Source of the DNA: Astropecten irregularis
Lineage: Eukaryota; Echinodermata; Asteroidea; Paxillosida; Astropectinidae
DNA length: 64,000 bases
Reading direction: 5' to 3'
Assembly (NCBI GenBank): GCA_963971285.1
Contig: OZ020255.1
Coordinates: forward strand, 15,830,931-15,894,930
Shown: positions 35,314 to 52,157 of the stretch, piece by piece
How the letters are laid out: each line of letters begins with the position of its first letter
Position numbering within the stretch: position 1 is the stretch's first letter
Made by a program: the position numbers and the translations under genes
The notes under the pieces: model-generated
Database searches by the model: none
Told to the model about the DNA's origin: nothing
Seen by the model: only the letters and a program-made list of their open reading frames with translations

Positions 35314-35318
35314 AGTGA
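35314..35318 (+). repeat. Target-site duplication AGTGA, left copy (right copy 52158-52162)
   Basis: AGTGA directly abuts both outer ends of the inverted repeats. Polintons usually duplicate about 6 bp; here 5 bp match exactly and the sixth base differs on either side. Confidence 0.8.
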
Positions 35319-35436
35319 AGTAGGGAGAGAATCCCAATGCTTGCCCAATTGAGCTTTCGATGTTCAAGTCTGGGCTGGGCATAATAAAAAAAATCGGAAA
35401 AAATTGAAAAAATTAAATAATATTATTTTATATTAT
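35319..35436 (+). repeat. Left terminal inverted repeat of the Polinton
   Basis: Starts AGTAGGGAGAGAATCCCAAT and matches the reverse complement of 52040-52157 with only a handful of differences, clustered in the A-tract. Its inner end runs into the TATA-like promoter of the polymerase gene, and its poly-A region may be used in protein-primed replication starts. Confidence 0.93.
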
Positions 35437-35448
35437 AATAAAAGGATA

Positions 35449-38400
35449 ATGACTGATCAAACAACGAATCAGCAAACGACAGAGCAGATGGCTAGGCCAA
35501 TTATTGCAAAGGGGTTTAGCCATTGGACAAAAGATAACTTAAAACATTTTGTTGAAGAAACCAAAATTCCAATAGAAGATCCAGAAACGGATTTTACTAA
35601 AAGTGAATATATTAATGCTATTACACGCAGACAACCAACCCCGCGTGGGTATAAAAGATGGGATTATTTAAAATTAAAAAATTATGTTCAAGATAATAAT
35701 ATTAGGTTAGATTTATCTAAAAAGCTCGATCACACTAGACGTGAATATATCAAAGCAATTAAAACGTTTACAAATCAATTTAAAAATTTAATAAAGAAAG
35801 ATAATCAAGAACTTAGAGAATTAGCTAGAAAATATAACCTCAATGTTGTTCCAACGGGTCAAAGAGGACAAGTAATAAAACGAGATTATATCAAAACGAT
35901 TAAAGAAAATTTATCATCGGAGGAAATTCGTGAAGCGACAAACTGGAGAGAAGTGAGATCTTTTCGTGGTAATCTTATAAATTTAGAAATAATTCTTCAA
36001 AGACAATATTCCGATCTAAATACATTTTTTAAACATCAGCATAAAAATATGATTAAAGAAGTAACAAAGATCTTTAGAAAAAAAGGTCAATTTAAGCTTG
36101 AATTTAGGATAAAACTCGAATATATAAAAGTTGAAGTTTTGGATGAAACATTACATGATTTTACTTTTCGAACCGAACAACATATTATTTTAAGGGAAGA
36201 TGAAATAAATGAAAAGGTTAATAGCATTTTGTTCGAGCTAATAAATGTAGTGGAATCAAAAGATTTTGGACCCTCGGGTTTAACTTTAAATAAAATATTA
36301 GCGTTTTATATGAACTTTATTAAATATACCAATGTTTCTGGTAGTTCATATATTGAACTTACGCCATTTATTAAACATAAAAAGGCTGTTGTTAGCGTAC
36401 AAAATGACGACGATCAATGCATTAGATGGGCTATCAGATCTGCGTTAGGGTTATACAAGGATGAAATCAAAGAAAAGAAAAAAAATAACCCGAAATACAG
36501 AATTCACGATGAAAGAGTCAGTACTTATAAGTTAAATGATGGGTTAGACTTTACCGGTATAGATTTTCCAACACCCTTAAAGCAGATTTCTAAAATAGAA
36601 AAACAAAATAATTTAAATATTAACGTGTTTGGGTTAGATTGTAATGATGAAAAAGAAGAATTTCCTTATCCATCACATATCTCTAAAGAAACAAACGACA
36701 TTCACATAAATCTATTATTATTTACTAGAGAAGTAGAAGAAGAAGGAGAAAAAATAATAAAAAGTCACTATGGTTGGATTAAGAATTTTTCGGCCCTATT
36801 CAGCAATGGTACATGTAAAGATGGGCATAAATTATATTTTTGTTACAGATGTCTATCGCATTTTTATACACCGCAAAAATTAAAAATTCACGATGAAATA
36901 TGTCAAGGATTAACCGTTCATCCTTCAAGAGTCATCCTTCCAGAAGAAGATAAAAATATTTTAAAATTTAAAAACTTTAAAAATTTTCAAGATGCACCGT
37001 TTGTGATTTACGCGGATTTTGAATGTATTTTAGAAAAATACAATGTAGAAAAGATGAAAAAAACTCAAAAGTTGAGCGTTCATAAACCCAGTGGTTATTC
37101 TTATGTTGTGGTAAGATTTGATGGAAAACTAATGAAGCAAAAAACCTATAGAGGGTGTAACGCTAGCGAGCATTTAATTAATTCATTGTTAAAAGAACAA
37201 CGTAAAATTAATCAAATATTTAATAATCCTATACCGATTGAAGAGATCGACGAATCATTAATGATGAGTAACGAGTGTTGGATTTGTGAAAAGGAAATAT
37301 ATCAAACTAGCGTTTTATATTGTAATTGTGAGATACCTCGTGAACCCAAAACCAAATCCGAAAAAGAAGAAAACGCGGTCACAAACAGTAAAGGTTATAC
37401 AGATTTTTTGTGTTTAGAATGCGGTAAAAAAATTAATAAATTTAGAAAAGTTAGAGATCACTGCCACATCACGGGTAAATTTAGAGGAGTTGCACATGCA
37501 CATTGTAACCTAAAACTTAAAATAACAAATCGAACACAAATACCGGTTATTTTTCACAATTTTAAAAATTACGACGGTCATTTGATCATGCAGGGGGTAA
37601 GCGCTTACGTCGAAACGTTAAATAATAAAATAAAAAAACGTGAAACGTGTATAGAAAAAATCAAAACGCGTATAGAAAAAATCGAAGTGTATAAAGAAAA
37701 ACTCGAAACCCAAGAAATAAAACTCCGCAAAAAAATTAGATACATAAAAGAAAAACGTGAAATTTTTAACGAGTTTCGTCGAAATATAAGAAAAGGTGAT
37801 AATTCAAAAATAAAAACGTTTGAAGAAAAATACGGAATTACATTCGATAAGAAACTTAATATAAAAATTAACCAAAAAGCAAACAAAAGCGAACGTTGTA
37901 ATAGAGAAAAAATAAAACTAATTAATCAAAAACTAAAAATAATCGATGAAAAAATAAATGTTAAAATCGATAAACTAAAAGAGGTTTTAAGTATATTAAA
38001 TTATTATCAAAAGGAAAAAAACGTATTCGATAATATATTTTGTATTCCTCAAAACTCGGAAAAATACATAAGTATTAGTATAGGTCAACTCCGTTTTATA
38101 GATTCGTTAAATTTTATGAACTCTTCCTTAGAAAAATTAGTCGCTGCTTGCCCTAAAGACGCATTTCATTTATTTAGAAAACATTTTAAAGATTATAATA
38201 CGGATGATGTTGATCTTTTATTAAAAAAGGGGTGTTATCCATACGAATATATGGATTCCTTTGATAGATTTAAAGAAACTAAATTACCACCCATTGAAAA
38301 GTTTTATAGTAAGATAAAACTCAAAGGTATTACGCGAGAAGAATATACTCACGCGGAGTTGGTTTGGAAAACTTTCAACTGTAAAACTCTAGGTGATTAT

Positions 38401-40038
38401 CACGACTTATACGTGTCCACGGATACGTTATTACTCGCCGATGTGTTTCAAAACTTTAGAACCACTTGTAAGAAAACATATCGTTTAGATCCAGCGAAAT
38501 ATCTCACGGCACCGGGATTGTCTTGGGATGCTTTGTTGCTGCATTCTAAAATAGAATTAGAACTTTTAACCGATATCGAACAATATTTATTTTTTGAAAA
38601 AGGTAAAAGAGGTGGTTATTCTAGCGTGGGTAGTTGTAGGCATCACAAAGCCAACAATAAATATTTAAAAGATTACGATCCTGAAAAAGAATCTTCTTAT
38701 TTACTTTATTTAGATGCGAACAATTTATACGGTTGGGCAATGAGTCAATCGTTACCCTACGCCGATTTTAAATGGTTAACCGATTACCAAGTCGCTAACT
38801 TTACGGTCAATCATATTTTAGGTTTAGCCGATGACAACGACTACGGATTTATGTTGGAAGTAGATCTAGACTATCCTAAAGAGCTTCACGACTTACACAA
38901 CGACTTACCCTTAGCCCCAGAGAACATAACCGTATCGGCTGAATGGTTGAGCCCTTATCAAAAAGAATTGTTATCTAGCGGAGAAAAAGCTTCGCGAGAT
39001 GACAGACTCATCGCTCATTTAGGACCTCGTAAAAAATATGTCATTCATTATAAAACGTTAAAACTGTATTTACAACTAGGATTAAAACTCACACGCGTAC
39101 ATCGTGTTTTACGATTTAAGCAAAAACCGTGGATGCGGTCTTACATCGATAAAAATACACAACTCAGAAAAATAGCCAAATCAGATTTTGAAAAAGATTT
39201 TTTTAAACTCATGAACAATTCCGTTTTTGGTAAAACAATGGAAAATGTTCGAAATAGAATAGATGGAAATATTATTATAGACGATGATAGCGATTTATCG
39301 ATAAAAAAAATATTAAAACTAGCATCCAAATCTAATTATAAAACATCAACTAAATTTACAGATTCTAATATAGGTTTCTTTGAAAGGTACAAAGAAAAAA
39401 CGTATTTAAATAAACCCATCTATTGTGGAGTGAGTATATTAGATTTAAGCAAATCTTTTATGTACGACTTTTATTACAATCACTTGAAGAAAAAATATAA
39501 CGATAACATAAATCTCATGTATACCGATACCGATAGTTTATTATTGATCGATAAAACCGACGATGTTTACGAGGATATTAAACGAGACTCAGAACTTTAC
39601 GATCTATCTAATTATTCACCCACTCACCCTTTATTTGACCCTAAAAACAAAAAAGTAATTGGAAAAATGAAAGATGAATACGGTGGCCAAGTAGTAAAAC
39701 AAGCCATTTGTTTAAGATCAAAAATGTATGTGATCTTAATACAAGATGATAAAGAGGTTAACAAAATTAAAGGTATAACAAAAACCGTGACTGAAAAAAA
39801 TATTAACTTTGAAAATTTTTATAATTGTTTACAAAATAAAAAATCTCAAGAACATCAAATGAATATAATTCAATCTAACAAACATCAAATTTATACGCAA
39901 GTGAAAACCAAAACTTCATTGAGTCCTTATGATGGAAAAAGATATATTTTATCCGATGGAATCAATACTTTAGCATTTGGCAATAAAAAAATTAAATATC
40001 AAGATTCTGGCAATTCGGTGTCATCTGGAACGATTTGA
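35449..40038 (+). CDS. Protein-primed family B DNA polymerase (pPolB)
   Basis: Replicates the element by protein priming at the inverted repeats. I start it at ATG 35449, just after the TIR promoter, not at the in-frame TTG upstream; length 1529 aa. The N-terminus has two or three SAP/HeH-like repeats (e.g. GFSHWTKDNLKHFV, GYKRWDYLKLKNYV). Then come a NDDDQCIRWAIRSALG block, a CxxC..H zinc-finger-like stretch and an HNH-like VRDHCHITGKFRGVAHAHCN. Exonuclease motifs: D523-F-E525, N704..YD709, Y988xxxD992. Polymerase motifs: A LDANNLYGWAM (D1089), B KLMNNSVFG (K1253), C YTDTDS (1358-1363). All catalytic residues are present. A lysine/glutamate-rich coiled-coil insertion (about 718-862) sits between Exo II and the rest of the exonuclease. 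Its 3' end overlaps the convergent integrase gene by 40 bp. Confidence 0.95.
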   Translation: MTDQTTNQQTTEQMARPIIAKGFSHWTKDNLKHFVEETKIPIEDPETDFTKSEYINAITRRQPTPRGYKRWDYLKLKNYVQDNNIRLDLSKKLDHTRREYIKAIKTFTNQFKNLIKKDNQELRELARKYNLNVVPTGQRGQVIKRDYIKTIKENLSSEEIREATNWREVRSFRGNLINLEIILQRQYSDLNTFFKHQHKNMIKEVTKIFRKKGQFKLEFRIKLEYIKVEVLDETLHDFTFRTEQHIILREDEINEKVNSILFELINVVESKDFGPSGLTLNKILAFYMNFIKYTNVSGSSYIELTPFIKHKKAVVSVQNDDDQCIRWAIRSALGLYKDEIKEKKKNNPKYRIHDERVSTYKLNDGLDFTGIDFPTPLKQISKIEKQNNLNINVFGLDCNDEKEEFPYPSHISKETNDIHINLLLFTREVEEEGEKIIKSHYGWIKNFSALFSNGTCKDGHKLYFCYRCLSHFYTPQKLKIHDEICQGLTVHPSRVILPEEDKNILKFKNFKNFQDAPFVIYADFECILEKYNVEKMKKTQKLSVHKPSGYSYVVVRFDGKLMKQKTYRGCNASEHLINSLLKEQRKINQIFNNPIPIEEIDESLMMSNECWICEKEIYQTSVLYCNCEIPREPKTKSEKEENAVTNSKGYTDFLCLECGKKINKFRKVRDHCHITGKFRGVAHAHCNLKLKITNRTQIPVIFHNFKNYDGHLIMQGVSAYVETLNNKIKKRETCIEKIKTRIEKIEVYKEKLETQEIKLRKKIRYIKEKREIFNEFRRNIRKGDNSKIKTFEEKYGITFDKKLNIKINQKANKSERCNREKIKLINQKLKIIDEKINVKIDKLKEVLSILNYYQKEKNVFDNIFCIPQNSEKYISISIGQLRFIDSLNFMNSSLEKLVAACPKDAFHLFRKHFKDYNTDDVDLLLKKGCYPYEYMDSFDRFKETKLPPIEKFYSKIKLKGITREEYTHAELVWKTFNCKTLGDYHDLYVSTDTLLLADVFQNFRTTCKKTYRLDPAKYLTAPGLSWDALLLHSKIELELLTDIEQYLFFEKGKRGGYSSVGSCRHHKANNKYLKDYDPEKESSYLLYLDANNLYGWAMSQSLPYADFKWLTDYQVANFTVNHILGLADDNDYGFMLEVDLDYPKELHDLHNDLPLAPENITVSAEWLSPYQKELLSSGEKASRDDRLIAHLGPRKKYVIHYKTLKLYLQLGLKLTRVHRVLRFKQKPWMRSYIDKNTQLRKIAKSDFEKDFFKLMNNSVFGKTMENVRNRIDGNIIIDDDSDLSIKKILKLASKSNYKTSTKFTDSNIGFFERYKEKTYLNKPIYCGVSILDLSKSFMYDFYYNHLKKKYNDNINLMYTDTDSLLLIDKTDDVYEDIKRDSELYDLSNYSPTHPLFDPKNKKVIGKMKDEYGGQVVKQAICLRSKMYVILIQDDKEVNKIKGITKTVTEKNINFENFYNCLQNKKSQEHQMNIIQSNKHQIYTQVKTKTSLSPYDGKRYILSDGINTLAFGNKKIKYQDSGNSVSSGTI

Positions 40039-41042
40039 AGTTCTTCTTTCACAAACGATCGTTTGGGTCCGTCTTTTAAGTAATAAAGCGTAGGACCTGT
40101 AGTAACTTTTTTACCACTCATGATTTTAAATTGACTCGTTCTTTTTTCAATTTGATACATGTTAACGCTCCATATGGGATCGGTAGCCCTCCTCACCGTA
40201 CCTCCTTCTTGTTCCCCTGGTTGATATAAATAACGAACTAAAACATTAGTCGGAAGATCACTAACGTTTGTTTTTTGTGGTGATGAGGGTAATTGTTTAA
40301 CCCGTTTTAACTTGATCGCTTGCGTAGGAGTGATTTCTTTATCTTTTGAATCTCGAATCAATCGTGTTGTTTCTTCATTGAGGGATTTTATAACCTGGGG
40401 CAACCTCACCACCCATTCGACGTTTCTCGCCTGCGGATCAAGCATTTCTTGCACGTATTGATGACCGAATAATCTTTCGGCTAAGGTTCGGTTAAATCTT
40501 TCAACCACTCCTTGCGATCGATGCACACCCGGCACACCTACGCTGATCTCTACGCCATGAGACTGAAACAACTTTTTAAAATCTCCTTTAAATTCTGTTC
40601 CAGCATCGATTTGCGCTAATTTAGGCCACGTTAAAGGCGAACGCTTGTAAATTTTAATAATCGCGTCTTTCACTTGACCGGCAACTTTAGAAGTTATGGG
40701 TTCAGCCTCTTTATACCGACTCGCCACGTCTATGACCGTCAACGCGTATTTAAACGTTTTTTGTTTAACTAGATCCCAGGGTAAGTATAATATATCTAAC
40801 TGATGTACGTAATTTGGTTCTAACCAATCACTCGACATTGCCGTCGGCCTGGGTACATATGAGGGAGGTGGTAAATAAATTTGCCAAACGGCTTGTTTTT
40901 TTAACCAAGATCTAACTTTTTGTTTATCAACCCCCGTTTTTTTATGCAAATGCGTGACAGCACCCTCACCTTTCCAATAACCTTTAGGACTGTAAAACAA
41001 ACCTGAAAGCTGTTCTCTTTGTTTTTTATTTAACTCACTCAT
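39999..41042 (-). CDS. Retroviral-type integrase (rve, DDE)
   Basis: Inserts the element into the host chromosome. I choose the ATG at 41042 (MSELNKKQREQL), 347 aa. It has an AT-rich promoter directly upstream and clears the neighbouring gene; an in-frame ATG at 41093 would overlap that gene. The catalytic triad is visible as D83 (QLDILYLP), D146 (AQIDAGTEF) and E181 (SQGVVERFNRTL), with DD35E-like spacing. The N-terminal part is HHCC-less but has a helix-rich GYWKGEGAVTHLHKKTG stretch usual in Polinton integrases. The C-terminal LVRYLYQPGEQEGGTVRR..DPIWS region resembles a chromo/SH3-like barrel. It converges on the polymerase gene and overlaps its 3' end. Confidence 0.93.
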   Translation of the reverse strand: MSELNKKQREQLSGLFYSPKGYWKGEGAVTHLHKKTGVDKQKVRSWLKKQAVWQIYLPPPSYVPRPTAMSSDWLEPNYVHQLDILYLPWDLVKQKTFKYALTVIDVASRYKEAEPITSKVAGQVKDAIIKIYKRSPLTWPKLAQIDAGTEFKGDFKKLFQSHGVEISVGVPGVHRSQGVVERFNRTLAERLFGHQYVQEMLDPQARNVEWVVRLPQVIKSLNEETTRLIRDSKDKEITPTQAIKLKRVKQLPSSPQKTNVSDLPTNVLVRYLYQPGEQEGGTVRRATDPIWSVNMYQIEKRTSQFKIMSGKKVTTGPTLYYLKDGPKRSFVKEELQIVPDDTELPES

Positions 41043-41049
41043 TTTTATT

Positions 41050-41472
41050 TTATACATATCTATAAATAAAGAATCCCACTGCGGCTGTACCACCTAATAC
41101 CCACACGAGTTCTCTAATTTGTTGATCATCACTCGGAGTATAAAAGTCACTAAGTTTTGGTTTAGGTGGTAATTCTAAATCGTAATTTTCACCCGTTATT
41201 TCGCTGTACACTCTAAGCGCTTCGTTTACGTTACTAAACGTTCTTTCTGATAATTTTTGTTGTATCATACGTTTATTCAAATAATCTAGATATTTAACGC
41301 GTTGTTGTTCCCAATCTTCTTTGGCTTGCGCTAATTTTTCTAATGCTAAGTCGTGTCTTTTTCGTTCTTTGTCAATTTGTTGTTTTGATAAACTACTAAA
41401 TAAAAAGTTACTACCGGTAAACGCTAACGCATTAACTACTGCCCCGCCAACCATCATTGCTATTCCTGCCAT
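41050..41472 (-). CDS. Small membrane-associated Polinton protein, function unknown
   Basis: 140 aa. It has a hydrophobic, glycine-rich N-terminus (MAGIAMMVGGAVVNALAF), a charged coiled-coil middle (about 30-75), a proline-rich LPPKPKLSDFY, and a C-terminal transmembrane segment (VWVLGGTAAVGFFIYRYV). A protein of this build commonly lies beside the capsid genes in animal Polintons; its role is not known to me. It is read from a promoter in the 57-bp divergent gap shared with the major capsid gene and lies 8 bp upstream of the integrase start. Confidence 0.75.
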   Translation of the reverse strand: MAGIAMMVGGAVVNALAFTGSNFLFSSLSKQQIDKERKRHDLALEKLAQAKEDWEQQRVKYLDYLNKRMIQQKLSERTFSNVNEALRVYSEITGENYDLELPPKPKLSDFYTPSDDQQIRELVWVLGGTAAVGFFIYRYV

Positions 41473-41529
41473 CTTTTTATTTATACTAATTTAAAAACCT
41501 TATATATTAAAAACACACTATTTTGAACT
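41473..41529. promoter_or_regulatory. Divergent promoter region between two Polinton genes
   Basis: 57 bp. CTTATATATTAAAAA (41499-41513) faces the capsid gene; on the other strand TAGTATAAATAAAAAG abuts the ATG of the 140-aa gene. Confidence 0.65.
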
Positions 41530-42789
41530 ATGAATCATTACGGTAAAAAACTAAACCCAATTAGGCGTCTTAAAATCCCTAAAGCCATTAAAGGCGAACG
41601 AAGAGAAGTGTCAATCACTCATAATCCAAGCACGATTGCGGCTGGTCAAAAACTCATCGTTAAGTTTCCGCAATTAGGACCCGACGATGTTATCGTACCC
41701 GGTACTTCTAAACTCGCTTTTAAACTCGAGTTAGAAGGGTCTGATAATAATCGAACGGTGTTTAACAACTTATGTCGTAACTTAATACGCGAAATCAATG
41801 TTAGGCTTCAAGGTAACACAATCGTGAGTTATCGCGATGCGGATGTCTTTCACAATTTTAAAGATAACTGGCTGCACCCCTACATTACACGAAATATGGC
41901 CTATGTAGGCCTTGAAAAAGAAAACGTCACAAAATTAAGATTAGGCGCGGCAGATGCTAATGCTGAAACTAATAGCGGAAAAGATAAAGCTATCGCAGAC
42001 GCGTTTGGTAATCGATATTGTATTCCTTTAGATATTGAGCTTTTAACGGCACATCATCCTTTTTATCCTAGCAGTCTAAAGCAGCCCCTGACGTATGAAT
42101 TAACATTTAACGATCACGATAAAGTCGTTAATAGCTCGGATACAAGTGCCCAATATTCAATTTCAGATTTAACGCTTGAATACGAAGTCGTCACTAACCG
42201 AGATTTGACACAAGAGCTAAAAAACAAACGAATGAAATACTATCTTTTTGATCACGTACATAATTTAGAAACAAGATCGATCAACAAATCAGATACCTTA
42301 TGGAACGTTATGATTAATCAACCGATTAAAAGTCTCAAAGGCGTTTTAATCTTATTTAGAGACCCAACTGTAAAAAACCCTCAAAGATTTTACAACCCCC
42401 ACATTAGCAAAACCAGCATTACGGTTGAAGGAAAACCCAATCAACTTTATTCTCAAGGTATGTTTGAGTATCAGCACTGGCAAGAAGTTAATAAATTTTT
42501 TGGTGATAGTGATACCGAAAATGGTCAATCGATTGTAAAAGATTTAAATTTAGTGGGCCTAGAAATGGCTGACTACTATAAAGATAAATACGGCCTGTGG
42601 CTAGATTTTCGCTCAACTGATGATAATAGTGCTCACGGAAGTGGAAGACGTTTAAACGACGGAGGAGGAATTCAGATTCAGATGACTCGAGAGGCTGAAA
42701 CAGCGGGAGATTTAACGATGTTTGTATTTTTGGTCATGGATGCGCAATTAACCATTGAGGATGGAAATTTTAAGAATTTAGTTTTTTAA
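41530..42789 (+). CDS. Major capsid protein candidate (double jelly-roll)
   Basis: 419 aa. Forms the capsid shell in the family. No short catalytic motif exists; the call rests on the strand-rich, lysine-poor composition and on segments typical of Polinton/NCLDV-like shell proteins: ISITHNPSTIAAGQ-type opening, VIVPGTSKLAFKLEL, NNLCRNLIREINVRLQG, a LLTAHHPFYPSSLKQPLTYELTF block between the two barrels, and DLTMFVFLVMDAQLTIEDG at the end. Gene order (small membrane protein, shell protein, packaging ATPase) also fits. The promoter CTTATATATTAAAAA lies 17 bp before the ATG. It is shorter than many Polinton shell proteins, so a structure prediction should be used to confirm two barrels. Confidence 0.82.
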   Translation: MNHYGKKLNPIRRLKIPKAIKGERREVSITHNPSTIAAGQKLIVKFPQLGPDDVIVPGTSKLAFKLELEGSDNNRTVFNNLCRNLIREINVRLQGNTIVSYRDADVFHNFKDNWLHPYITRNMAYVGLEKENVTKLRLGAADANAETNSGKDKAIADAFGNRYCIPLDIELLTAHHPFYPSSLKQPLTYELTFNDHDKVVNSSDTSAQYSISDLTLEYEVVTNRDLTQELKNKRMKYYLFDHVHNLETRSINKSDTLWNVMINQPIKSLKGVLILFRDPTVKNPQRFYNPHISKTSITVEGKPNQLYSQGMFEYQHWQEVNKFFGDSDTENGQSIVKDLNLVGLEMADYYKDKYGLWLDFRSTDDNSAHGSGRRLNDGGGIQIQMTREAETAGDLTMFVFLVMDAQLTIEDGNFKNLVF

Positions 42790-42805
42790 AAGATTATTAA
42801 AATAA

Positions 42806-43411
42806 ATGGAATCTTGTCATTGTGCTTTAATTGTAGGAAAAACAAACTCGGGAAAGACTAAATGGATTTTAGATTTATTGGAAACCGAATATCGTGGTAA
42901 ATTTGAATCGATCGTGGTCATTTGCCCGACCTTATTTAAAAATAAAACTTATTTATCGAGGCTTTGGATATCAATGGATGAAAATGTATATTTGTGTGAT
43001 TTAGACTTTGAAAAAATAACTTTAAATGAAGCCCTAGATTTGTATCAAAATATTTTAGATGGAATAAAAACATTATTTATCATAGATGATTGTTCGAGTC
43101 AGCAGGAAATAAAATATCGAAAAAAAACATGTGCGTTGAGCAAAATCGCTTTTTCTGGGAGGCATTATAACCATAGCTGTTGGTTATTAACACAAAAGTA
43201 TAATTCGGTTTTAAAAGACTATCGTGAGAATACAAGTTGGGTTGCGATGTTTTATACAAAAGATAAAACGAGTTTTGATATTGCATTAGATGAAAATGAT
43301 GTTGTGTGTGATCAAAAAAGAGACGTAATTAAAAAACATTTGTGCGATAAAAAATATAGTAAATTGGTTATTAACACAGAACCTCCAGTTTCATATCAAG
43401 TTTTTGATTAA
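42806..43411 (+). CDS. FtsK-HerA/A32-like genome-packaging ATPase
   Basis: 201 aa P-loop ATPase that would pump DNA into the capsid. Walker A is GKTNSGKT (residues 11-18), Walker B LFIIDDC with D94-D95, and a conserved LLTQKYNSV segment follows as in poxvirus A32-type enzymes. It starts 16 bp after the major capsid stop codon with a weaker TATTAAAATAA element in between, so the two are probably co-transcribed or closely co-ordinated. Length matches the family. Confidence 0.93.
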   Translation: MESCHCALIVGKTNSGKTKWILDLLETEYRGKFESIVVICPTLFKNKTYLSRLWISMDENVYLCDLDFEKITLNEALDLYQNILDGIKTLFIIDDCSSQQEIKYRKKTCALSKIAFSGRHYNHSCWLLTQKYNSVLKDYRENTSWVAMFYTKDKTSFDIALDENDVVCDQKRDVIKKHLCDKKYSKLVINTEPPVSYQVFD

Positions 43412-43424
43412 CAACCTAATTTTT

Positions 43425-43680
43425 GTTATCATTTGTTGTATTTTGTTAAAAATTTGCTAATAACTAACTATCAAGTTATTTATAGCAATTTTTAATTTTG
43501 TTATAAATAAAAAACACCAATGCTACAATACGTTGATGTTATTATTAAGTTTGTTATCATTTGTTGTATTTTGTTAAAAATTTGCTAATAACTACCTATC
43601 AAGTTATTTATAGCAATTTTTAATTTTGTTATAAATAAAAAACACCAATGCTACAATACGTTGATGTTATTATTAAGTTT
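43425..43680 (+). repeat. 128-bp tandem duplication ahead of a Polinton gene
   Basis: Two nearly identical 128-bp units (43425-43552, 43553-43680; I see one substitution). Each carries an imperfect hairpin (TTGCTAATAACT..AGTTATTTATAGCAA) followed by a T-rich run and a copy of ATGCTACAATACGTTGATG. It separates the ATPase gene from the next gene and may hold 3'-end signals for the former. Confidence 0.9.
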
Positions 43681-43758
43681 GTTATCACTTTAAACTTAAG
43701 CTACTTATGTTATAATTTATTTTGCTTTAACAAAATTTATAAGTTGTTATATAGTAAA

Positions 43759-44373
43759 ATGAACGACTTGACAACAATTATAAATAGCGATGTAAATACA
43801 CCTTCAACAACAAACGACAGTAGTTATAAAGATCGACTTTGTGGCATAGTTGCAGCAGGTGATTCAAAAAAATATTTAGGTAAAGAATACACCATCAAAG
43901 ACATAGAAGCACTAACACCTGCAGATCAAGAAAAATTATTTAACCGGTATCAAGTTAAATTCGGTAAAGAAGTGGTAGCTACAGTGGGTAACTCAATTTT
44001 GAGTTTGTATGCACGAGCTATAGGTTTAGCAACTCCGGCTGATATTTTAGGAATTAGAATTAGCTTAAATTCTGAGGAAAATTTAACCAATGATTTAAAT
44101 AACGATCCTATCATTAGTAATAGCTTAGCTTATGCACTTAGCGAGGTTTGTTACAAATATGGTGTCTATCTATCACCTTTGATAGCAACACTTATTACCA
44201 CAAAACATTTAAACTTTAACAAATCCACAACAAATAAAAATACTTATATAATAAATAATTCAAATGACAACTATGCATCAGGAGAAGGAGCAAGCTTTAC
44301 CAACAGCACCCCCAACAACAGCACCAGCAGCACCAACACCGATACCAACAACCCCAGTGACGCAAGTAACTAA
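43759..44373 (+). CDS. Conserved-type Polinton protein, function unknown
   Basis: 204 aa from ATG 43759, chosen because GTTATATAGTAAA precedes it; the open frame extends 37 codons upstream into the tandem duplication, which looks like chance. It has a short Ser/Thr-rich start, then DRLCGIVAAGDSKKYLGKEYT and NRYQVKFGKEVVATVGNSIL, and ends in a long Asn/Thr/Ser-rich tail (about 155-204). The core resembles an unnamed protein repeatedly seen in animal Polintons. No catalytic motif. Its last 110 bases overlap the next gene in another frame. Confidence 0.75.
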   Translation: MNDLTTIINSDVNTPSTTNDSSYKDRLCGIVAAGDSKKYLGKEYTIKDIEALTPADQEKLFNRYQVKFGKEVVATVGNSILSLYARAIGLATPADILGIRISLNSEENLTNDLNNDPIISNSLAYALSEVCYKYGVYLSPLIATLITTKHLNFNKSTTNKNTYIINNSNDNYASGEGASFTNSTPNNSTSSTNTDTNNPSDASN

Positions 44374-44671
44374 AAAACAAACCGTAAAACCTAAAAACGC
44401 TAAACGCGTTGAACAAGGTAAACGCCTAGCAGAACATAATAAAAAAATGAAAGAGCAATTAGCTAAAATGAAAACAGAAGAGACAGAGTCGGAGATTATT
44501 CAAAATACCCCTGATTCGAGATTACTTTATGTTGGCGGTTTAATTTTAGTAGGCGGTATAGGTTTTTTATTGTATAAATCATTAAACAAATCACCAGAAA
44601 ACTCTAAACCTATTCAAATAACAAAACCAAGTCTACCACAGAGTCAACCCGAAGAACTTTTAATGGATTGA
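44264..44671 (+). CDS. Single-pass membrane protein with Pro/Thr-rich and basic N-terminal region
   Basis: 135 aa. Pro/Thr/Ala-rich segment (about 12-40), a basic KNAKRVEQGKRLAEHNKKMKEQ stretch, one transmembrane helix (about 87-107, YVGGLILVGGIGFLLYKSL) and a polar tail. Function unknown; it could be a virion membrane or core-associated protein. It overlaps the preceding gene by 110 bases in the +1 frame, yet a good promoter copy (TACTTATATAATAAATAATT, 44241-44260) lies inside that gene just before this ATG. That supports independent expression. Confidence 0.75.
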   Translation: MTTMHQEKEQALPTAPPTTAPAAPTPIPTTPVTQVTKKQTVKPKNAKRVEQGKRLAEHNKKMKEQLAKMKTEETESEIIQNTPDSRLLYVGGLILVGGIGFLLYKSLNKSPENSKPIQITKPSLPQSQPEELLMD

Positions 44672-44696
44672 TTTTTTAAATGTTTATATATTAAAA

Positions 44697-44807: not shown

Positions 44808-44836
44808 TTTAAATTTTAAAAACTTATATAGTAAGA

Positions 44837-45091
44837 ATGGCAAATACAAATATTGATATAAACGGAATAGCAAACACAGTTTATCATGGTGCAGTGTTAA
44901 GCCTTTTAACCATGGGATATTCGATGGTAAGTAAAAAATTACTAAAAATTAAATCGCCTGATTTAGATAGGCTTAGCGTAGAAGATGCGGCTAAACTAAC
45001 CGCATTAGTCGGAGGTTCTTTAGCAACGCAACAGTGGTTGGTCACACAGGGAATCTTACCGGGTAGTATTATAAATAAACCTACAGTTTAA
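44837..45091 (+). CDS. Small hydrophobic Polinton protein, function unknown
   Basis: 84 aa. A hydrophobic helix (about 12-32, IANTVYHGAVLSLLTMGYSM), then a KSPDLDRLSVEDAAKL polar part and a second weak hydrophobic stretch (TALVGGSLATQQWLV). Promoter CTTATATAGTAAGA ends at the base before the ATG. Part of a run of four small same-strand genes ahead of the 450-residue protein. Confidence 0.7.
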   Translation: MANTNIDINGIANTVYHGAVLSLLTMGYSMVSKKLLKIKSPDLDRLSVEDAAKLTALVGGSLATQQWLVTQGILPGSIINKPTV

Positions 45092-45117
45092 AATGTGTAT
45101 ATAATAAATAATTAAAG

Positions 45118-46470: not shown

Positions 46471-46503
46471 TTTTGTTTTTTAACAAAATAATTAAAAAAA
46501 ATA

Positions 46504-46531
46504 ACCCCCAAGCTCTTTTGAGCTTGGGGGT
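46504..46531. terminator. Perfect 12-bp hairpin between convergent genes, flanked by A and T tracts
   Basis: ACCCCCAAGCTC, loop TTTT, GAGCTTGGGGGT, with a run of A before and of T after. It lies between the stops of the 450-aa and the 419-aa genes, so it can serve both transcripts. Hairpins at transcript 3' ends are known in giant DNA viruses; use here is inference. Confidence 0.65.
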
Positions 46532-46560
46532 ATTTTTTTTGTTTAAATATTTATATTTTT

Positions 46561-47820
46561 CTAAGTCAAAATTTTGTAGACTAAAACTCCTATCACAATG
46601 ATTGCAACTGTTCCTATCGTTAAAGATAATTTTTCATCTTGATGAATGTCTAAAGATGCTTTAGGATTTGACTCTGAGGTTTTAGGTATAGGTGATAAAT
46701 GTGGTGTAGGTTCTTCTGTTGGTTCTTGAGTGGGTTTGGGTTCAAGGGTTGGCTGAGGATCAAAGTCATCAACTTGTATCGGAGCGTTTAAGGTTGGTTG
46801 AAATCCCGGTTTAGCGGTTAAAGGTGCAATTTGCAAGTTATTATTGTAACCATCGTGTATGCCTACCCTTAAATCCATATCTGACGGAATGAGGTATAAC
46901 CCGGGTCTTACGACAAAGTTGAGTGGAGTTTTAGCATACTGCAGTGAATCTTGAAATTGATTGATACTTTGCTCTAAATCTGGTTCGCTATTAATAAGAC
47001 TTTCTACGATGGTAACAAACTGATGCTGCGCATCTAAACCGGTTCCCGGGGTTAATGCACTGGTTTTTGTTTGTGCTTGTGCACCTAAAAGCGCGTACAC
47101 GTAAGCCCTAATCGATTCGTTAATTTTTGTAATTCCAACATCGGTAAAAGAACTCGTCTTTGAAATAAAGTCTGTCCAAGCACCTAAAACATTATTGGAT
47201 TGTTCAAGGTAAGTGACCGTATAGGTACTCGCGTGACCCGATCCTTTTGGTGGATCCATTAAACCAAATCCCATAAAAGTTGAGCCTGCATACGTACCGT
47301 AGTTTACACCCAAGTCGTGGGGGTCATAGTTTTTCCCCGGCACTGGAACCGACCCCGAATTGTAGTAAAAAGCAGTACCCAAGCCATTTGAGGTCGTATC
47401 TCTCGTTTGTTTAAAAGACTTGCTTCGATCGATGCCAAATACGCGGCACGTGTCCGTAAAAGCTCTCGTATCATAACGGTTATTTAACGCGTTAAATACA
47501 TCATCACCAGGTATAGGTGCTACCAAATTATAAAATATTTTTCGTATAGTATAATACACGTGAAAATGAAACAGCGATGAAATATATTGGTTTTTATTGT
47601 GGAGGAGGTCAAGACCTACTCCACACGCGGTCGTGGCACAATAAATCGCAAAGTTGAATTGGTTTTGATAAAAGGACAAAGGGTTAGTTTGCCATCGTTC
47701 GATTGCTTCGTCCGTTTTAACACGTGGTAATTTATACGCGGTTGACATATCTTTAAATTGTACAAAAAAAGTATTATTTTTATTGACGATAATAGCTAAA
47801 GCGCCTAAAGAGTTTCCCAT
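46561..47820 (-). CDS. Membrane-anchored Polinton protein, probable virion component, function unknown
   Basis: 419 aa. Conserved-looking N-terminal half with AIERWQTNPLSFYQNQFNFA and ATTACGVGLDLLH, a HFHVYYTIRKI segment, then a Pro/Thr/Glu-rich stalk (about 340-390) and a C-terminal transmembrane helix (LSLTIGTVAIIVIGVLVYK). The SFYQNQFNFA..ATT.CGV block is one I associate with unnamed proteins of animal Polintons, near the capsid genes. A stalk plus C-terminal anchor suggests a surface-exposed virion or membrane protein. Promoter GACTTATATTATAA abuts the ATG. Divergent from the minor capsid gene with a 39-bp shared promoter gap. Confidence 0.75.
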   Translation of the reverse strand: MGNSLGALAIIVNKNNTFFVQFKDMSTAYKLPRVKTDEAIERWQTNPLSFYQNQFNFAIYCATTACGVGLDLLHNKNQYISSLFHFHVYYTIRKIFYNLVAPIPGDDVFNALNNRYDTRAFTDTCRVFGIDRSKSFKQTRDTTSNGLGTAFYYNSGSVPVPGKNYDPHDLGVNYGTYAGSTFMGFGLMDPPKGSGHASTYTVTYLEQSNNVLGAWTDFISKTSSFTDVGITKINESIRAYVYALLGAQAQTKTSALTPGTGLDAQHQFVTIVESLINSEPDLEQSINQFQDSLQYAKTPLNFVVRPGLYLIPSDMDLRVGIHDGYNNNLQIAPLTAKPGFQPTLNAPIQVDDFDPQPTLEPKPTQEPTEEPTPHLSPIPKTSESNPKASLDIHQDEKLSLTIGTVAIIVIGVLVYKILT

Positions 47821-47859
47821 TTATAATATAAGTCTTTTTATAATAAAAGTAGAGTAAGA

Positions 47860-49050
47860 ATGAGCGGAATACAACACACATTTTATTTGACAAAAAACGA
47901 ACAAACGTTTAAATTGCAAGAGGTGGTTGATAATTTAGATGGCTCAAAACAAATTCGCGTTAAAAATCTCGTGTTTACGGTAGGCTATTTTAACATAACT
48001 AAATCTAGTGAGATTACTTGGGAAAAGGATATAGATGGGCAACCCGCTTATACTAACGGTAGGCCTAGAGACAATAGACAAACTGATAAAAGCTCACAAC
48101 TACAGACAAAGCCATTAGAACTGACCCCTGAGATAATGAATCAATTTCGTTTATCGATGACAACTGAAGAAATTCAACAAAGCAGAAAAGAAGTCATAGC
48201 ACGCATTATTACACAGATGTTTGATGGATATGATACTGAAATTCTTAACGAAGTGGAAATAAAAATACAAGAAGAAATACAGGTCCTCAGACAACGAAAA
48301 CAAACCCTAGAATTAGCCAGGGATAGACTTGATGATGAATTACAAAATGAAGTTAACTATGTAATACATTTATTAAATAAAAGAATAGACTATATCATAG
48401 AAGGCCAAGTATTAGCCACAAATTTACTTCGATATGGATACAACAATGACAATCAAGAAAAAACAGAAAATATGCGTTTACCACAAATTAAAAACAGCCT
48501 CGTTGTTTTAGGACATAAAGAGCCAATCGTAAATGCACTACATCCGGTGAGTGAGGTTACGGCTTTGCCTGAGGGCAAATCAGGAAGCATCATTATTTTA
48601 CCTGGATTTTATGGTATCGATTGGTTCGAGTCATTGATAAACGCGATACCGGGTGTGAGCTTTAAAGTCTATAGAGAAAGTAAAACGGTGACCTTAAGGG
48701 TCACTGATATAAACCTTAATCTACGTTTAAATCGAGAAGTTTCTAATTTACTCAATTTACCCAAAGGAAGGTTAATCCCAAATGTCATTTATAAGGGTGA
48801 TTACGATATTAACCCATTTAACATTACGTTTATTCATTGCGAGCAGTTAAACACGAGTGATAATTTTTACAACGGGTTTCCTTCAAATATGTTATCATTT
48901 TATCACACAAGCCAAACAAACCAAACTCACGTTGGGAAAACATTAAAAAACGGTAAAATTAATAAACTTGCCTTTTCAATTAAAAACGAGGAAGGAAAAA
49001 TCATCAATAACAAAGGCGCGGGGATTTTAATCGAATGTGAAATAATTTAA
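47860..49050 (+). CDS. Minor capsid (penton) protein candidate with coiled-coil insert
   Basis: 396 aa. N-terminal strand-rich part, a charged central coiled coil (about 95-190), then a C-terminal half from about 205 with the pattern expected of a single jelly roll: SLVVLGHKEPIVNALHP, LRVTDINLNLRLNREVSNLL, INPFNITFIHCEQLN, and the closing INKLAFSIKNEEGKIINNKG..IECEI, which is close to the ends of Polinton penton proteins. It would occupy capsid vertices. Position beside the 419-aa protein and the 223-aa protein also fits. No enzymatic motif. Confidence 0.78.
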   Translation: MSGIQHTFYLTKNEQTFKLQEVVDNLDGSKQIRVKNLVFTVGYFNITKSSEITWEKDIDGQPAYTNGRPRDNRQTDKSSQLQTKPLELTPEIMNQFRLSMTTEEIQQSRKEVIARIITQMFDGYDTEILNEVEIKIQEEIQVLRQRKQTLELARDRLDDELQNEVNYVIHLLNKRIDYIIEGQVLATNLLRYGYNNDNQEKTENMRLPQIKNSLVVLGHKEPIVNALHPVSEVTALPEGKSGSIIILPGFYGIDWFESLINAIPGVSFKVYRESKTVTLRVTDINLNLRLNREVSNLLNLPKGRLIPNVIYKGDYDINPFNITFIHCEQLNTSDNFYNGFPSNMLSFYHTSQTNQTHVGKTLKNGKINKLAFSIKNEEGKIINNKGAGILIECEII

Positions 49051-49055
49051 AAACG

Positions 49056-49071
49056 CTTATATATTAAAAAT
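49056..49071 (+). promoter_or_regulatory. Polinton promoter motif (best example)
   Basis: CTTATATATTAAAAAT immediately before an ATG. Comparable copies lie at 35430-35443, 41499-41513, 43746-43758, 44243-44258, 44683-44696, 44823-44836, 45095-45110 and 47836-47848 on the plus strand, and at 41043-41060, 41473-41488, 47821-47834, 50254-50265 and 52031-52048 on the minus strand. Confidence 0.7.
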
Positions 49072-49743
49072 ATGGCAACCGTAAATGTAAATGAAATAAA
49101 ACCTTTATATCCTGATCTAAACTTAAACAGCGGTGATGATATTAAAGACGAAACTAAAATTTATCGACTTCAAAAAATTGAAGATATTAAATCTCTAATC
49201 TGTAAAGAAAGAAACTCGCGCGAGGTTTCTTTTAAAAAGTTAAAAAGGTGGATCTCTGCGATTCAATATGTAGAGCACGGGGTTGAAGTACTGGGGGTCA
49301 CTGCAGCCGCGATAGGGATCCCCGCATTAATGGGTGTTATTAGTGCCCCAATTGGCTTAGTCTTAGAGGGGACTAGCATAGGTGCCTTTGGATTTTACGC
49401 GGTACTTAAATACGCAAGCAAAAAATTAACGGTAAAGAGTAAAAAACACGATCAGATTAAAATTTTAGCAGATGCAAAGTTAAACACGATAGATGAATAC
49501 GTGTCAAAAGCCATCGAAGATGGTGATATTTCTCACGAAGAATTTATATTAATTACGTCAGAACTTAAAAAATTTAACGACTTGAAAGAAAAAATAAGAT
49601 TAAAAACTTCTACAAAGTTAGAAGAAGCTAAACATTTAAATAAAGTTGAATTTGAACGACAAGTTGAAGAAAAGGCTAAAGCGATGGCGAGTGATTTACT
49701 CGCCAAAGAAAAAAAAGAGCTTATGAAAAAACTTGGAAATTAA
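49072..49743 (+). CDS. Polinton protein with paired hydrophobic helices, function unknown
   Basis: 223 aa. A basic/acidic N-terminal third, then hydrophobic VEVLGVTAAAIGIPALMGVI and SAPIGLVLEG..GAFGFYAVLKY (about 71-115), then a charged helical C-terminus with KKHDQIKILADAKLNTIDEYVSKAIEDGDISHEEF. The last motif recurs in unnamed proteins of animal Polintons. It follows the penton candidate by 21 bp with its own CTTATATATTAAAAAT promoter. Role unknown; a membrane or scaffold role is possible. Confidence 0.75.
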   Translation: MATVNVNEIKPLYPDLNLNSGDDIKDETKIYRLQKIEDIKSLICKERNSREVSFKKLKRWISAIQYVEHGVEVLGVTAAAIGIPALMGVISAPIGLVLEGTSIGAFGFYAVLKYASKKLTVKSKKHDQIKILADAKLNTIDEYVSKAIEDGDISHEEFILITSELKKFNDLKEKIRLKTSTKLEEAKHLNKVEFERQVEEKAKAMASDLLAKEKKELMKKLGN

Positions 49744-49821
49744 GTTTAAGTTTGACAAAGTCGTTTAAAAACGAGGAGAGTAAACCTCCGAGTTATAAAG
49801 AAAGTCAAGCGAGAGTTAGCC

Positions 49822-50253
49822 CTACGGCTCCTCCTCTTTAAAAGTTTCGTTGTATCTTTTTAACGCTTGATTAAAATATTTTAATTCTACTTGAAATAAC
49901 TTTTGTACTGTTTCTTGGGTTACGTTAGAAACATTTTTTAGATAACATACAGCCATTAACGACCTGAGTGGATGACCCCTAGATATTTTTCCCTTTAATA
50001 TTTGTTTTAATTTAAACTCGACGAGTTTAAGGTCACACATTTGGTATTGAATTTTAAATTTATCAAAGACTTTTTTTACTATAGAAGCCTTTGTTTTTTT
50101 ATAGAAAAATCTCTGATTATACTTTCCATTAATATTTTCCGTAGAATAATCCATGAGACTATAACCTATAATTAATCCACACTTGTTGCAATAATACTCG
50201 TCTTTGTCTTCATCAATCATGATGTTGTGAGTGCACATACCTATCTCATCCAT
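49822..50253 (-). CDS. TFIIB-like zinc-ribbon protein (candidate element-encoded transcription factor)
   Basis: 143 aa. The zinc ribbon is C7-x-H9..C22-x2-C25 (MCTHN..YYCNKCGLIIG). After a short linker with YNQRFFYKKTK, the C-terminal half has a single helical repeat with RGHPLRSLMAVCYLKNVSNV, TQETVQKLF and NQALKRY, matching the pattern of a TFIIB/cyclin-fold repeat (R-x-P-x-S..A..Y..., T...., ...RY). Cellular TFIIB has two such repeats, so this is a reduced version. Large DNA viruses encode TFIIB-like or VLTF-type factors; I infer it may recognise the shared promoter motif of this element. Convergent with the 223-aa gene; ATG directly follows TTAAATATAA. Confidence 0.6.
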   Translation of the reverse strand: MDEIGMCTHNIMIDEDKDEYYCNKCGLIIGYSLMDYSTENINGKYNQRFFYKKTKASIVKKVFDKFKIQYQMCDLKLVEFKLKQILKGKISRGHPLRSLMAVCYLKNVSNVTQETVQKLFQVELKYFNQALKRYNETFKEEEP

Positions 50254-50460
50254 TTATATTTAAAAAAAAATTAATTAATTATTATTTTTTTTTTTTACTG
50301 AATCATTTTTTTTTCACCCAATACTTTACTCAGAATGCGTGGGCGTTTTTATAAAGAGTGTAAAGGGGCCGGGGTCTATGCCTTAAACTCATCAAAGAGG
50401 GCCAACAACACTATTGACCCCCTTTTTTGGGGTACCGGGTTCAAAGTTTAAAGGTTTTTT

Positions 50461-50659
50461 TTTTTCATGTTTTTTTATGTCAGGATATTGTTTTTTATGT
50501 TTCTTATTAAATATCACCCCAAATATTCAACGAGAAACATTTTTTCTTTTTCTATTTTTTTTCATGTTTTTTTATGTCAGGATATTGTTTTTTATGTTTC
50601 TTATTAAATACCCACATCAAATATTCAACGAGAAACATTTTTTCTTTTTCTATTTTTTA
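50461..50659 (+). repeat. ~97-bp tandem duplication, two units
   Basis: Units beginning TTTTTCATGTTTTTTTATGT and containing ATTCAACGAGAAACA are repeated head to tail with minor differences (ATCACCCC against ACCCACATC). Confidence 0.85.
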
Positions 50660-50695
50660 TTCATATTTTTTGTTATGTTAATTTCAATTTTACAG

Positions 50696-50768
50696 ACCGT
50701 GTGTCGAACCCGGTACCCTGTGGTTGCAAACCGCCGAGCTTATCCACTGAGCTATCCCCCAGCCCCGA
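50696..50768 (-). repeat. tRNA-like sequence (SINE head or degenerate tRNA)
   Basis: On the minus strand it reads GGGGGATAGCTCAGTGGATA.. with a good Pol III A box (TAGCTCAGTGG) and B-box-like GGTTCGACAC. GGTT-TGC-AACC could be a shortened anticodon arm. The acceptor arm does not pair, so I do not call a functional tRNA. Confidence 0.55.
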
Positions 50769-51160
50769 CTGAAAATGGTTTTTTAATTTGATATATATTA
50801 TATTCGAAATGGTGCAATAACAACGATGACGACACAAAGGACGAGTCTATTTTTTGAGGGGTGTTTGACTGTGATTGTGACGGTTTACACAGGTTCAGTC
50901 ATGTGTTATATTTCAATAACAAACCCGAGTGCTTTTAGGAATTTAAACCTTTGTGTCAGCGGATGACTAAGCGTTTTACACTACGTTCAGTCATGAATGA
51001 AATTTGAATAACAAAAACCCTGTTTACGCTGGGGACAACCACGCGTGACATTGAATGGCTGTTTTTTTCAAGCGAGTGTTGTGTATACACTTAAGGTAAA
51101 TAACCTTTAGTGCATTGTCAAGTGCATATGAGTAGTGCACATGCATACGACGTAAAAAAA

Positions 51161-51188
51161 AAGCCACATCCTAATTTGGATGTGGCTT
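51161..51188. terminator. Perfect 11-bp hairpin after the right-end gene
   Basis: AAGCCACATCC, loop TAATTT, GGATGTGGCTT, about 70 bases beyond the stop of the minus-strand gene. In that gene's direction a T run follows the hairpin, as at the 46.5-kb hairpin. Confidence 0.6.
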
Positions 51189-51258
51189 AATTTAGTGTGT
51201 AAATAAAAATGATAATTTTTTTGTTATTTTTTTTGGCTTTCTTTTTTATATTCTAGAT

Positions 51259-52029
51259 TTAGTCATCAATATCTTCAATATCAAACATGACATTAGTGGG
51301 GATTTGTATAGTTTCATATTGCCTAATAAAAGCTTGTTCTAATTTAAATCTGATACTTGCACCAAATCCACTATTTCCATGAGAACCAAAAAATATATCA
51401 TTACAGATGAGAACAGGTGTAACTTTACATGATTTATTCATATATTCATCGATGTTATCAATCTTTTTCTTTTTAGAATCAAACAATTTTGTATATTGTT
51501 TTAATTGATTTCCTTTTCCATATGATTTAAGTTTAATATACATTTTTTTGTTTTTATCATCATAAATTGGTTTAACACTTTGTTTTCCCATGTTTATATA
51601 CATAGTTCTGGTTATTTTTGGTATATTTTTATCTTTATCAGATTCAATATATTTAGTTACTGTACATCTCATTTTATCAAAGTATTTAACAATTTCATCA
51701 CAATCATTTTGTAAATTATATACAATTTGATAGCCAGTTGTGTTGTCTGGATTTTTTTCTTCACCAAAAGTATTAATTGTATTTATTCCAAAACAAAAAT
51801 TTGTTGGTAACATAAAAATTAAATTACATTCTTTATCATCATGTTTATAAGTAATTTTTGATTTAGCACATTCTACTACTTCTTGTGAAGTTTTAATCGC
51901 TGGATTTATTATTAAATTTTTCTCATTAAACAACCCATAATGATTATATTCACTTTTATCTGCGTTTTTATATAGATCATGTTTTTCAGTTACAAAGTAT
52001 GTATGTTTTATTGTTTTGTTTTGTTCCAT
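51259..52029 (-). CDS. Right-end Polinton protein, possible ssDNA-binding protein
   Basis: 256 aa, lysine- and asparagine-rich. It is read inward from the right TIR promoter, the mirror image of the polymerase gene. The C-terminal CKVTPVLICNDIFFGSHGNSGFGASIRFKLEQAFIRQ has the cadence of the closing strands seen in OB-fold-type ssDNA-binding proteins of large DNA viruses (an [IV]W/F-x(n)-G-x-x-[WF]-K-x-x-Q pattern). Protein-primed systems such as adenovirus and phi29 need an SSB, so the pairing with the polymerase would make sense. This is a weak, pattern-based guess; otherwise unknown. Confidence 0.45.
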   Translation of the reverse strand: MEQNKTIKHTYFVTEKHDLYKNADKSEYNHYGLFNEKNLIINPAIKTSQEVVECAKSKITYKHDDKECNLIFMLPTNFCFGINTINTFGEEKNPDNTTGYQIVYNLQNDCDEIVKYFDKMRCTVTKYIESDKDKNIPKITRTMYINMGKQSVKPIYDDKNKKMYIKLKSYGKGNQLKQYTKLFDSKKKKIDNIDEYMNKSCKVTPVLICNDIFFGSHGNSGFGASIRFKLEQAFIRQYETIQIPTNVMFDIEDIDD

Positions 52030-52039
52030 CTTATTTATA

Positions 52040-52157
52040 ATAATATAAAATAATATTATTTAATTTTCTCATTTTTTTCCGATTTTTTTTATTATGCCCA
52101 GCCCAGACTTGAACATCAAAAGCTCAATTGGGCAAGCATTGGGATTCTCTCCCTACT
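52040..52157 (-). repeat. Right terminal inverted repeat of the Polinton
   Basis: Reverse complement of the left repeat, ending ATTCTCTCCCTACT. One clear substitution (TTTGATG against TTCGATG) and a few in the A-rich part. The inner edge supplies the promoter of the minus-strand gene ending at 51259. Confidence 0.93.

What the first reader, a model, noticed from the sequence alone, without database searches (positions are those of the whole stretch)
35319..52157. Near-complete, apparently intact Polinton with capsid genes
Matched TIRs, an exact 5-bp target duplication, and uninterrupted polymerase, integrase, ATPase, shell and penton candidates suggest a young insertion that could still replicate or form particles. 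Every gene frame is open over 16.8 kb, unusual against decayed surroundings.
Basis: partly seen in the sequence, partly recalled or inferred. Interest (0 to 1): 0.85.

Follow-up and report, generated by a model that had tools for sequence, protein, structure and literature searches.

The report
Young, recombining Polinton virus family
A complete 16.8-kb virus-like element (a Polinton) sits in this genome among at least 88 places that carry near-identical copies, and the mutations that copies share suggest that its shell gene has been kept working while copies exchanged pieces, as expected of a virus population caught inside one genome.

Summary

Four probes, each with a capped list, mark 88 distinct places in the same genome. 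Of 25 copies examined, 24 are bounded at both ends by exact duplications, 23 of 5 bp and one of 6.

Two results go beyond a young insertion, both on 21 copies. Variants shared between copies are mostly silent: 27 amino-acid-changing against 60 silent over five genes, 6 against 22 in the shell gene. The copies are also mosaics: at least 34 recombination events.

I read it as a recently active integrative virus of the Polinton kind. It has a 5-bp instead of the reported 6-bp duplication and no recognised adenovirus-type protease. Virions, transcription and the host's identity are not shown.

The parts
35314..35318 (.). target-site duplication AGTGA, left copy
   Evidence: sequence; exact match to 52158-52162
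35319..35442 (+). left terminal inverted repeat, 124 nt
   Evidence: 40 matches scored among 114 candidates in the same genome
35449..40038 (+). [quoted passage not shown]
   Evidence: motif positions (motif meaning recalled; OTU-like domain described in PMC11071308); Pfam Endonuclease_7 E 2e-4, below its cut-off; no Pfam polymerase model matched. Starts 6 nt after the inner end of the left repeat
39999..41093 (-). retrovirus-like integrase, 364 aa, D100-D163-E198 (DD35E)
   Evidence: Pfam rve E 1.7e-8 above cut-off; phmmer matches to retroviral integrases in the PDB; motif spacing
41050..41472 (-). 140-aa protein with N-terminal hydrophobic segment, function unknown
41530..42789 (+). major capsid protein, 419 aa, double jelly-roll
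42806..43411 (+). A32-type genome-packaging ATPase, 201 aa
   Evidence: Pfam Pox_A32 E 3.7e-10 above cut-off
43422..43687 (.). 128-bp tandem duplication (2.1 copies); single in 2 of 3 other copies read, doubled in the third
43759..44373 (+). 204-aa protein (ATG chosen downstream of the 43648 ATG), function unknown; overlaps the next frame
   Evidence: the same overlap in 3 of 3 other copies
44264..44671 (+). 135-aa proline-rich protein with one hydrophobic segment
45118..46470 (+). 450-aa protein with three C-terminal hydrophobic segments
46561..47820 (-). 419-aa protein with a C-terminal hydrophobic segment, function unknown
47860..49050 (+). penton candidate, 396 aa, helical stretch in the middle; assignment not established
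   Evidence: no relatives in the protein collection at E 0.001, nor for residues 206-396 at E 5; single-sequence model uninformative, pLDDT 36.9; 40 of 40 scored copies match over the full length at 99-100% (best 40 of 120 candidates)
49072..49743 (+). 223-aa protein with one long hydrophobic segment
49822..50253 (-). 143-aa zinc-ribbon protein, TFIIB/poxvirus A2L-like (weak)
   Evidence: Pfam Zn_Ribbon_TF E 1.7e-4, A2L_zn_ribbon E 0.011, both below cut-off
50254..51258 (.). about 1 kb without a convincing gene (one 125-aa frame lies across the repeats), with a 97-bp tandem repeat at 50458-50671
51259..52029 (-). 256-aa protein, function unknown; starts 4 nt after the inner end of the right repeat
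52034..52157 (-). right terminal inverted repeat, 124 nt
52158..52162 (.). target-site duplication AGTGA, right copy

Best explanation
This is one provirus of a recently, perhaps still, active integrative DNA virus of the Polinton/Maverick kind.

Inferred cycle: a linear genome with terminal repeats is copied from both ends by the protein-primed polymerase. The polymerase's OTU-like domain frees the priming part. The A32 ATPase packages the DNA into a shell of the double jelly-roll protein. The DD35E integrase inserts genomes with a 5-bp stagger.

Shown here: termini and duplications, integrase and ATPase families, the shell fold (as a model), near-identity of many copies, silent-biased shared variation including the shell gene, and mosaic copies in the assembly. 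Inferred: protein priming, packaging, particles, and that the exchange between copies happens while several genomes replicate in one cell.
For: Structure: repeats; exact duplications in 24 of 25 copies examined, 23 of 5 bp and 1 of 6 bp. Genes: rve integrase and A32 ATPase above Pfam cut-offs; polymerase motifs in order; double jelly-roll shell.

Youth: 88 distinct places from four probes; left repeat plus polymerase stretch 99.4-99.9% in 20 of 20 copies, and the polymerase open over the 1423-1424 codons read in 18 of 20; shell-gene frame without a stop in 59 of 60 family matches among the best-scored; 111 private substitutions over 21 copies of 7,653 sites, 3 of them in the window copy.

Selection: shared variants 27 changing / 60 silent where about 66 changing were expected (p 5e-19). 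By gene: shell 6/22, integrase 5/14, polymerase 12/16, ATPase 1/3, p41050 3/5.

Exchange: 1,838 of 3,403 site pairs fail the four-gamete test; at least 34 events; linkage falls with distance, 0 of 5000 permutations as strong.
Against: No particle, transcript or extrachromosomal form was seen. The penton is unproven. No adenovirus-type protease was recognised. The polymerase matched no Pfam or NCBIfam polymerase model, so that name rests on motifs.

The genes read in only 4 copies give weaker or no selection signal: p43759 3/3 and p44264 5/2 changing/silent; p46561 8/10 and p47860 9/10 are mildly silent-biased.

Some copies are broken. Of the 20 other copies read over five genes, 4 have a stop or frame-breaking gap in one gene, and a fifth has lost the shell gene's ATG. 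p47860 is frame-shifted in 1 of 3. Copies were picked by best left-repeat match, which favours young ones.
Confidence: 0.75

Rival explanations
1. A transposon that spreads only inside the germline genome; the capsid genes are passengers and no particles are made.
For: Insertions were looked for in one genome only; no particle evidence. A very recent burst from a few sources would leave frames open without selection on each copy.
Against: Shared variants in the shell gene are as silent-biased (6 changing/22 silent, p 2e-9) as those in the integrase (5/14) and more than in the polymerase (12/16). A passenger gene should drift to about 76% changing (expectation).
Confidence: 0.2
2. The mosaic pattern comes from gene conversion between resident chromosomal copies, not from genomes replicating together.
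For: Many near-identical dispersed copies give the host repair machinery templates; mean r-squared already falls from 0.197 below 200 bp to 0.129 at 200-600 bp, which suits short tracts.
Against: At least 34 events in 21 copies with only 111 private substitutions would need conversion to run fast compared with mutation, between copies on different contigs.
Confidence: 0.3
3. The mosaic pattern is an assembly or polishing artefact that mixed variants between near-identical repeats.
For: Copies are over 98% alike in the genes read and about 16.7 kb long; the read type behind the assembly is unknown to me.
Against: Unique flanks and exact duplications at 24 of 25 copies examined show the copies are resolved as places; an artefact of this kind would not make shared variants silent.
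Confidence: 0.15
4. A host-retained element with a protective role, like endogenous virophages in protists.
For: High copy number and kept genes; such a role is reported for virophages and suggested for polinton-like viruses of protists (beginnings of the abstracts of PMC8547959, PMC10945749 and PMC12220804 in the listings).
Against: No giant-virus partner was looked for; the 1,529-aa polymerase candidate suggests it copies itself.
Confidence: 0.05

Closest known systems
Polinton/Maverick elements (Krupovic et al. 2014, PMC4028283; Barreat and Katzourakis 2021, PMC8097293; passages read)
   Same: 15-20 kb, terminal repeats, pPolB, RVE integrase, packaging ATPase, double jelly-roll shell protein; purifying selection also reported for cyprinid Mavericks, and up to 38 intact copies in one fish genome
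   Different: 5-bp duplication in 23 of 24 bounded copies instead of the 6 bp reported for intact vertebrate Mavericks; no recognised adenovirus-type protease (identifiable in 74% of the elements surveyed in PMC4028283); penton not recognisable by sequence
Meldvirus Meld23486 (Buck et al. 2024 preprint, PMC11071296; outline, section 16, figure legends and passages read)
   Same: adintovirus-like polymerase and retrovirus-like integrase joined to shell genes that resemble large DNA viruses
Adintoviruses (definition in PMC11071296, section 16)
   Same: PolB with an OTU-like region, rve integrase
   Different: their definition needs a hexon recognisable by BLASTp and an integrase chromodomain, neither shown here
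Mavirus-type virophages
   Different: lower structural similarity than the large-virus shells; here the polymerase has exonuclease motifs, of which mavirus keeps only a remnant (PMC11071308, section 5)

Membership tests
[quoted passage not shown]
   ordered motifs present in a 1529-aa frame, but no Pfam, NCBIfam or PDB sequence match to a polymerase; no fold was run
Polinton/Maverick | retrovirus-like (RVE) integrase with DDE triad | tested here: met
Polinton/Maverick | A32/FtsK-type packaging ATPase | tested here: met
Polinton/Maverick | double jelly-roll major capsid protein | tested here: met
Polinton/Maverick | single jelly-roll minor capsid protein (penton) | tested here: inconclusive
   model pLDDT 36.9; no relatives
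Polinton/Maverick | adenovirus-type cysteine protease (common, not universal) | tested here: inconclusive
   no C5/C48 match in any of the 14 frames scanned at E 0.1, nor in nine of them at E 10; a divergent one is not excluded
Polinton/Maverick | terminal inverted repeats with target-site duplication | tested here: met
vertebrate-type Maverick (PMC8097293) | 6-bp target-site duplication | tested here: not met
   5 bp in 23 of 24 bounded copies, 6 bp in 1
Adintovirus (as defined in PMC11071296) | hexon recognisable by BLASTp to other adintoviruses | not tested
   no named adintovirus sequence was at hand; one structural match is to an Adintovirus sp. protein
Adintovirus (as defined in PMC11071296) | integrase with C-terminal chromodomain | tested here: inconclusive
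   no chromodomain match at E 0.1

The most novel reading that the evidence does not exclude
The genome holds a sample of a living, freely recombining virus population: scores of proviruses laid down within a short time by a Polinton that still moves in particles. Its shell is of the large-virus type, probably around a membrane (5 of 13 proteins carry hydrophobic segments), and it works without the adenovirus-type maturation protease.
Probability: 0.35. Interest if true: 0.8.

Novelty: new variant of a known kind. Interest (0 to 1): 0.62.

Why it matters
Whether Polintons are viruses or only transposons has rested largely on gene content and on selection measured across species; particles had not been observed at the time of PMC8097293 (its abstract). 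This family offers a population-genetic test inside one genome: many near-identical copies, silent-biased shared variation in the shell gene, and extensive exchange between copies. With that many young copies, transcripts, packaged DNA and insertion differences between individuals become directly testable in the living host.

Tried and rejected
Repeat divergence as a clock: rejected, because three of the window's four left/right differences are shared by nearly all copies read.

A wrong first reading, mended: I had taken the 128-bp duplication to be private to the window copy; one of the three other copies read also has it.

Penton test: two protein searches and a single-sequence fold gave nothing usable. 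It remains a candidate by position and by my reading of the sequence only.

Relatives in IMG/VR: four scans, none found (shell protein, shell alignment, penton candidate, polymerase part).

Adenovirus-type protease: no family match. Of two signatures recalled for it, HW occurs only in the polymerase and shell protein and the CG one in none of 13. Not excluded.

Other lineages: a relative's shell protein (P0010) used as query found, beside 60 family matches, 38 matches at 60-69% identity plus one fragmentary place on C146. Stops were noted at 6 of these 39 places. They were not read further.

Host identity: not found; no eukaryote reference collection is at hand, and rRNA and cox1 searches did not complete.

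Sampling limits: the copies were the window and 20 of the 24 other copies whose left end was fetched, which lists the best 40 of 114 candidates. They lean to young, intact ones. Expected changing fractions assume transition weight 2 and no AT bias, and the 44 nt where integrase and p41050 overlap count twice.

Full report
What was checked. The finding names a near-complete Polinton at 35319-52157. The terminal repeats are 124 nt and 97% complementary, and AGTGA is repeated exactly outside them. Inside are 13 gene frames without stops. Ten of the window's 13 stop-to-stop frames of 170 aa or more are in the element.

Genes. The integrase (Pfam rve, E 1.7e-8) and the A32-type ATPase (E 3.7e-10) pass Pfam's cut-offs. 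The integrase has D100, D163 and E198 and matches retroviral integrases in the PDB. The 1,529-aa polymerase is named from motifs: an OTU-like Cys and His region, exonuclease motifs and polymerase motifs A, B and C in order. The family-B motifs are recalled; the OTU-like domain is described in PMC11071308 (section 5, parts 1 and 2 of 3 read). No Pfam or NCBIfam polymerase model matched. The first ATG of the polymerase lies 6 nt inside the left repeat's inner end and that of the 256-aa gene 4 nt inside the right one, so the repeats probably hold both promoters (inference). Five of 13 proteins have hydrophobic segments, which suggests a membrane in the particle (inference). A 143-aa protein has a weak TFIIB/A2L-like zinc ribbon.

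Penton candidate. The 396-aa protein at 47860 found no relatives at E 0.001, nor at E 5 with residues 206-396. Its single-sequence model is uninformative (pLDDT 36.9). The 40 scored of 120 candidates in the genome match over the full length at 99-100%, so the gene is widely kept, but its role is not established.

Copies. Four probes gave lists cut by the tool: 40 scored of 114 candidates for the left repeat, 40 of 122 for the ATPase, 40 of 120 for the penton candidate, and 99 of 252 for a relative's shell protein, where 60 of 100 rows are this family by their 46-47% identity to that relative. Together they mark 88 distinct places on 22 contigs, 57 of them hit by two or more probes; marks within 17.2 kb of one another were taken as one place. 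The candidate counts suggest a true number somewhat above 100 (inference). Of the 60 shell-gene rows of this family, 59 have no stop.

Target sites. Of 25 copies examined, including the window, the right end was found for 24. The duplication is exact in all 24, 5 bp in 23 and 6 bp in one. A copy on C18 had no right end in the 401 bp read. PMC8097293 (passages) reports 6 bp for intact vertebrate Mavericks, so 5 bp is a trait of this family.

Age. Compared with the window, 20 other copies are 99.4-99.9% identical in the left repeat plus polymerase stretch, 99.0-100% in the integrase, 98.3-99.8% in the shell gene and 99.5-100% in the ATPase. Private substitutions number 111 over 21 copies of 7,653 sites, 6.9e-4 per site; the window copy has 3. 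At assumed rates of 2e-9 to 1e-8 per site per year (recalled; host unknown) this is roughly 70,000 to 350,000 years, an upper figure, since some private variants predate insertion.

Integrity. The polymerase is open over the 1423-1424 codons read in 18 of 20 copies. Over the five genes, 4 of 20 copies have a stop or a frame-breaking gap in one gene, and a fifth lacks the shell gene's ATG. Three of 20 have an in-frame 3-nt insertion in the shell gene. One of 3 copies has a frame-shifted p47860. Most copies read are unbroken in the genes read, not all.

Selection. Among 21 copies, variants carried by two or more copies are 27 amino-acid-changing and 60 silent, against about 66 changing expected (p 5e-19). 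Private ones are 65 and 46, against about 85 changing expected (p 2e-5). The two classes differ (Fisher p 2e-4). The shell gene alone gives 6 to 22 (p 2e-9). So the shell gene was under constraint in the lineages that gave rise to these copies. PMC8097293 (passages) argued from such constraint in cyprinid Mavericks that they spread mainly as particles; the same argument applies here within one genome. Four further genes, read in 4 copies each, give 3/3, 5/2, 8/10 and 9/10 changing/silent, too few to decide. Variants are not fully independent and AT bias was not modelled.

Exchange. Of 3,403 pairs of 83 shared two-state sites, 1,838 show all four combinations. Mean r-squared falls from 0.197 below 200 bp to 0.08-0.09 beyond 600 bp. 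At least 34 events are needed, and no permutation of 5,000 gave as strong a fall with distance. Shared variation is densest in the integrase to shell stretch. Genomes that replicate together in one cell would do this; gene conversion between chromosomal copies or an assembly artefact are the rivals.

Known and new. The parts that I could name have precedents: Polintons with this gene set (PMC4028283, passages), selection in Mavericks (PMC8097293, passages), and adintovirus-like replication genes joined to a large-virus-type shell (Meld23486, PMC11071296, sections and legends read). What I did not see in the listings of six paper searches is a population-level demonstration, within one genome, of constraint on the shell gene together with recombination between young copies. 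I therefore file it as a new variant of a known kind.

Limits. Host unknown; no expression data; empty site not tested; penton and protease open; copies chosen by similarity.

Noticed in passing
G000, e.g. C14:11791910, C29:4287071, C1:32268521: Further lineages of the same shell-protein family share this genome: 38 matches 60-69% identical to a relative (P0010) that is only 45-46% identical to the window's protein, plus one fragmentary place on C146; stops noted at 6 of the 39 places.
   Followed up: partly
window 39999-42789: Shared variation between copies is denser in the integrase to shell stretch than in the polymerase or ATPase, as if this module came from a more diverse pool.
   Followed up: partly
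window 43759-44671: Two overlapping frames, the second proline-rich with a hydrophobic tail; the overlap is the same in 3 of 3 other copies. A programmed frameshift is possible, untested.
   Followed up: no
window 9360-10601: Minisatellite with an 86-bp unit, 14.8 copies, 95% matches.
   Followed up: no
window 825-901, 23798-23870, 26821-26896: Three tRNA-like genes, two of them tRNA-Thr; whether they are genes or repeat-derived was not checked.
   Followed up: no
G000:C19:18455590-18476571: A copy bounded by both repeats spans about 21 kb, some 4.3 kb longer than the usual 16.7 kb, and lies in a satellite array.
   Followed up: no
window 50458-50671: A 97-bp tandem repeat in the element's only long gene-poor stretch; possibly regulatory.
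   Followed up: no
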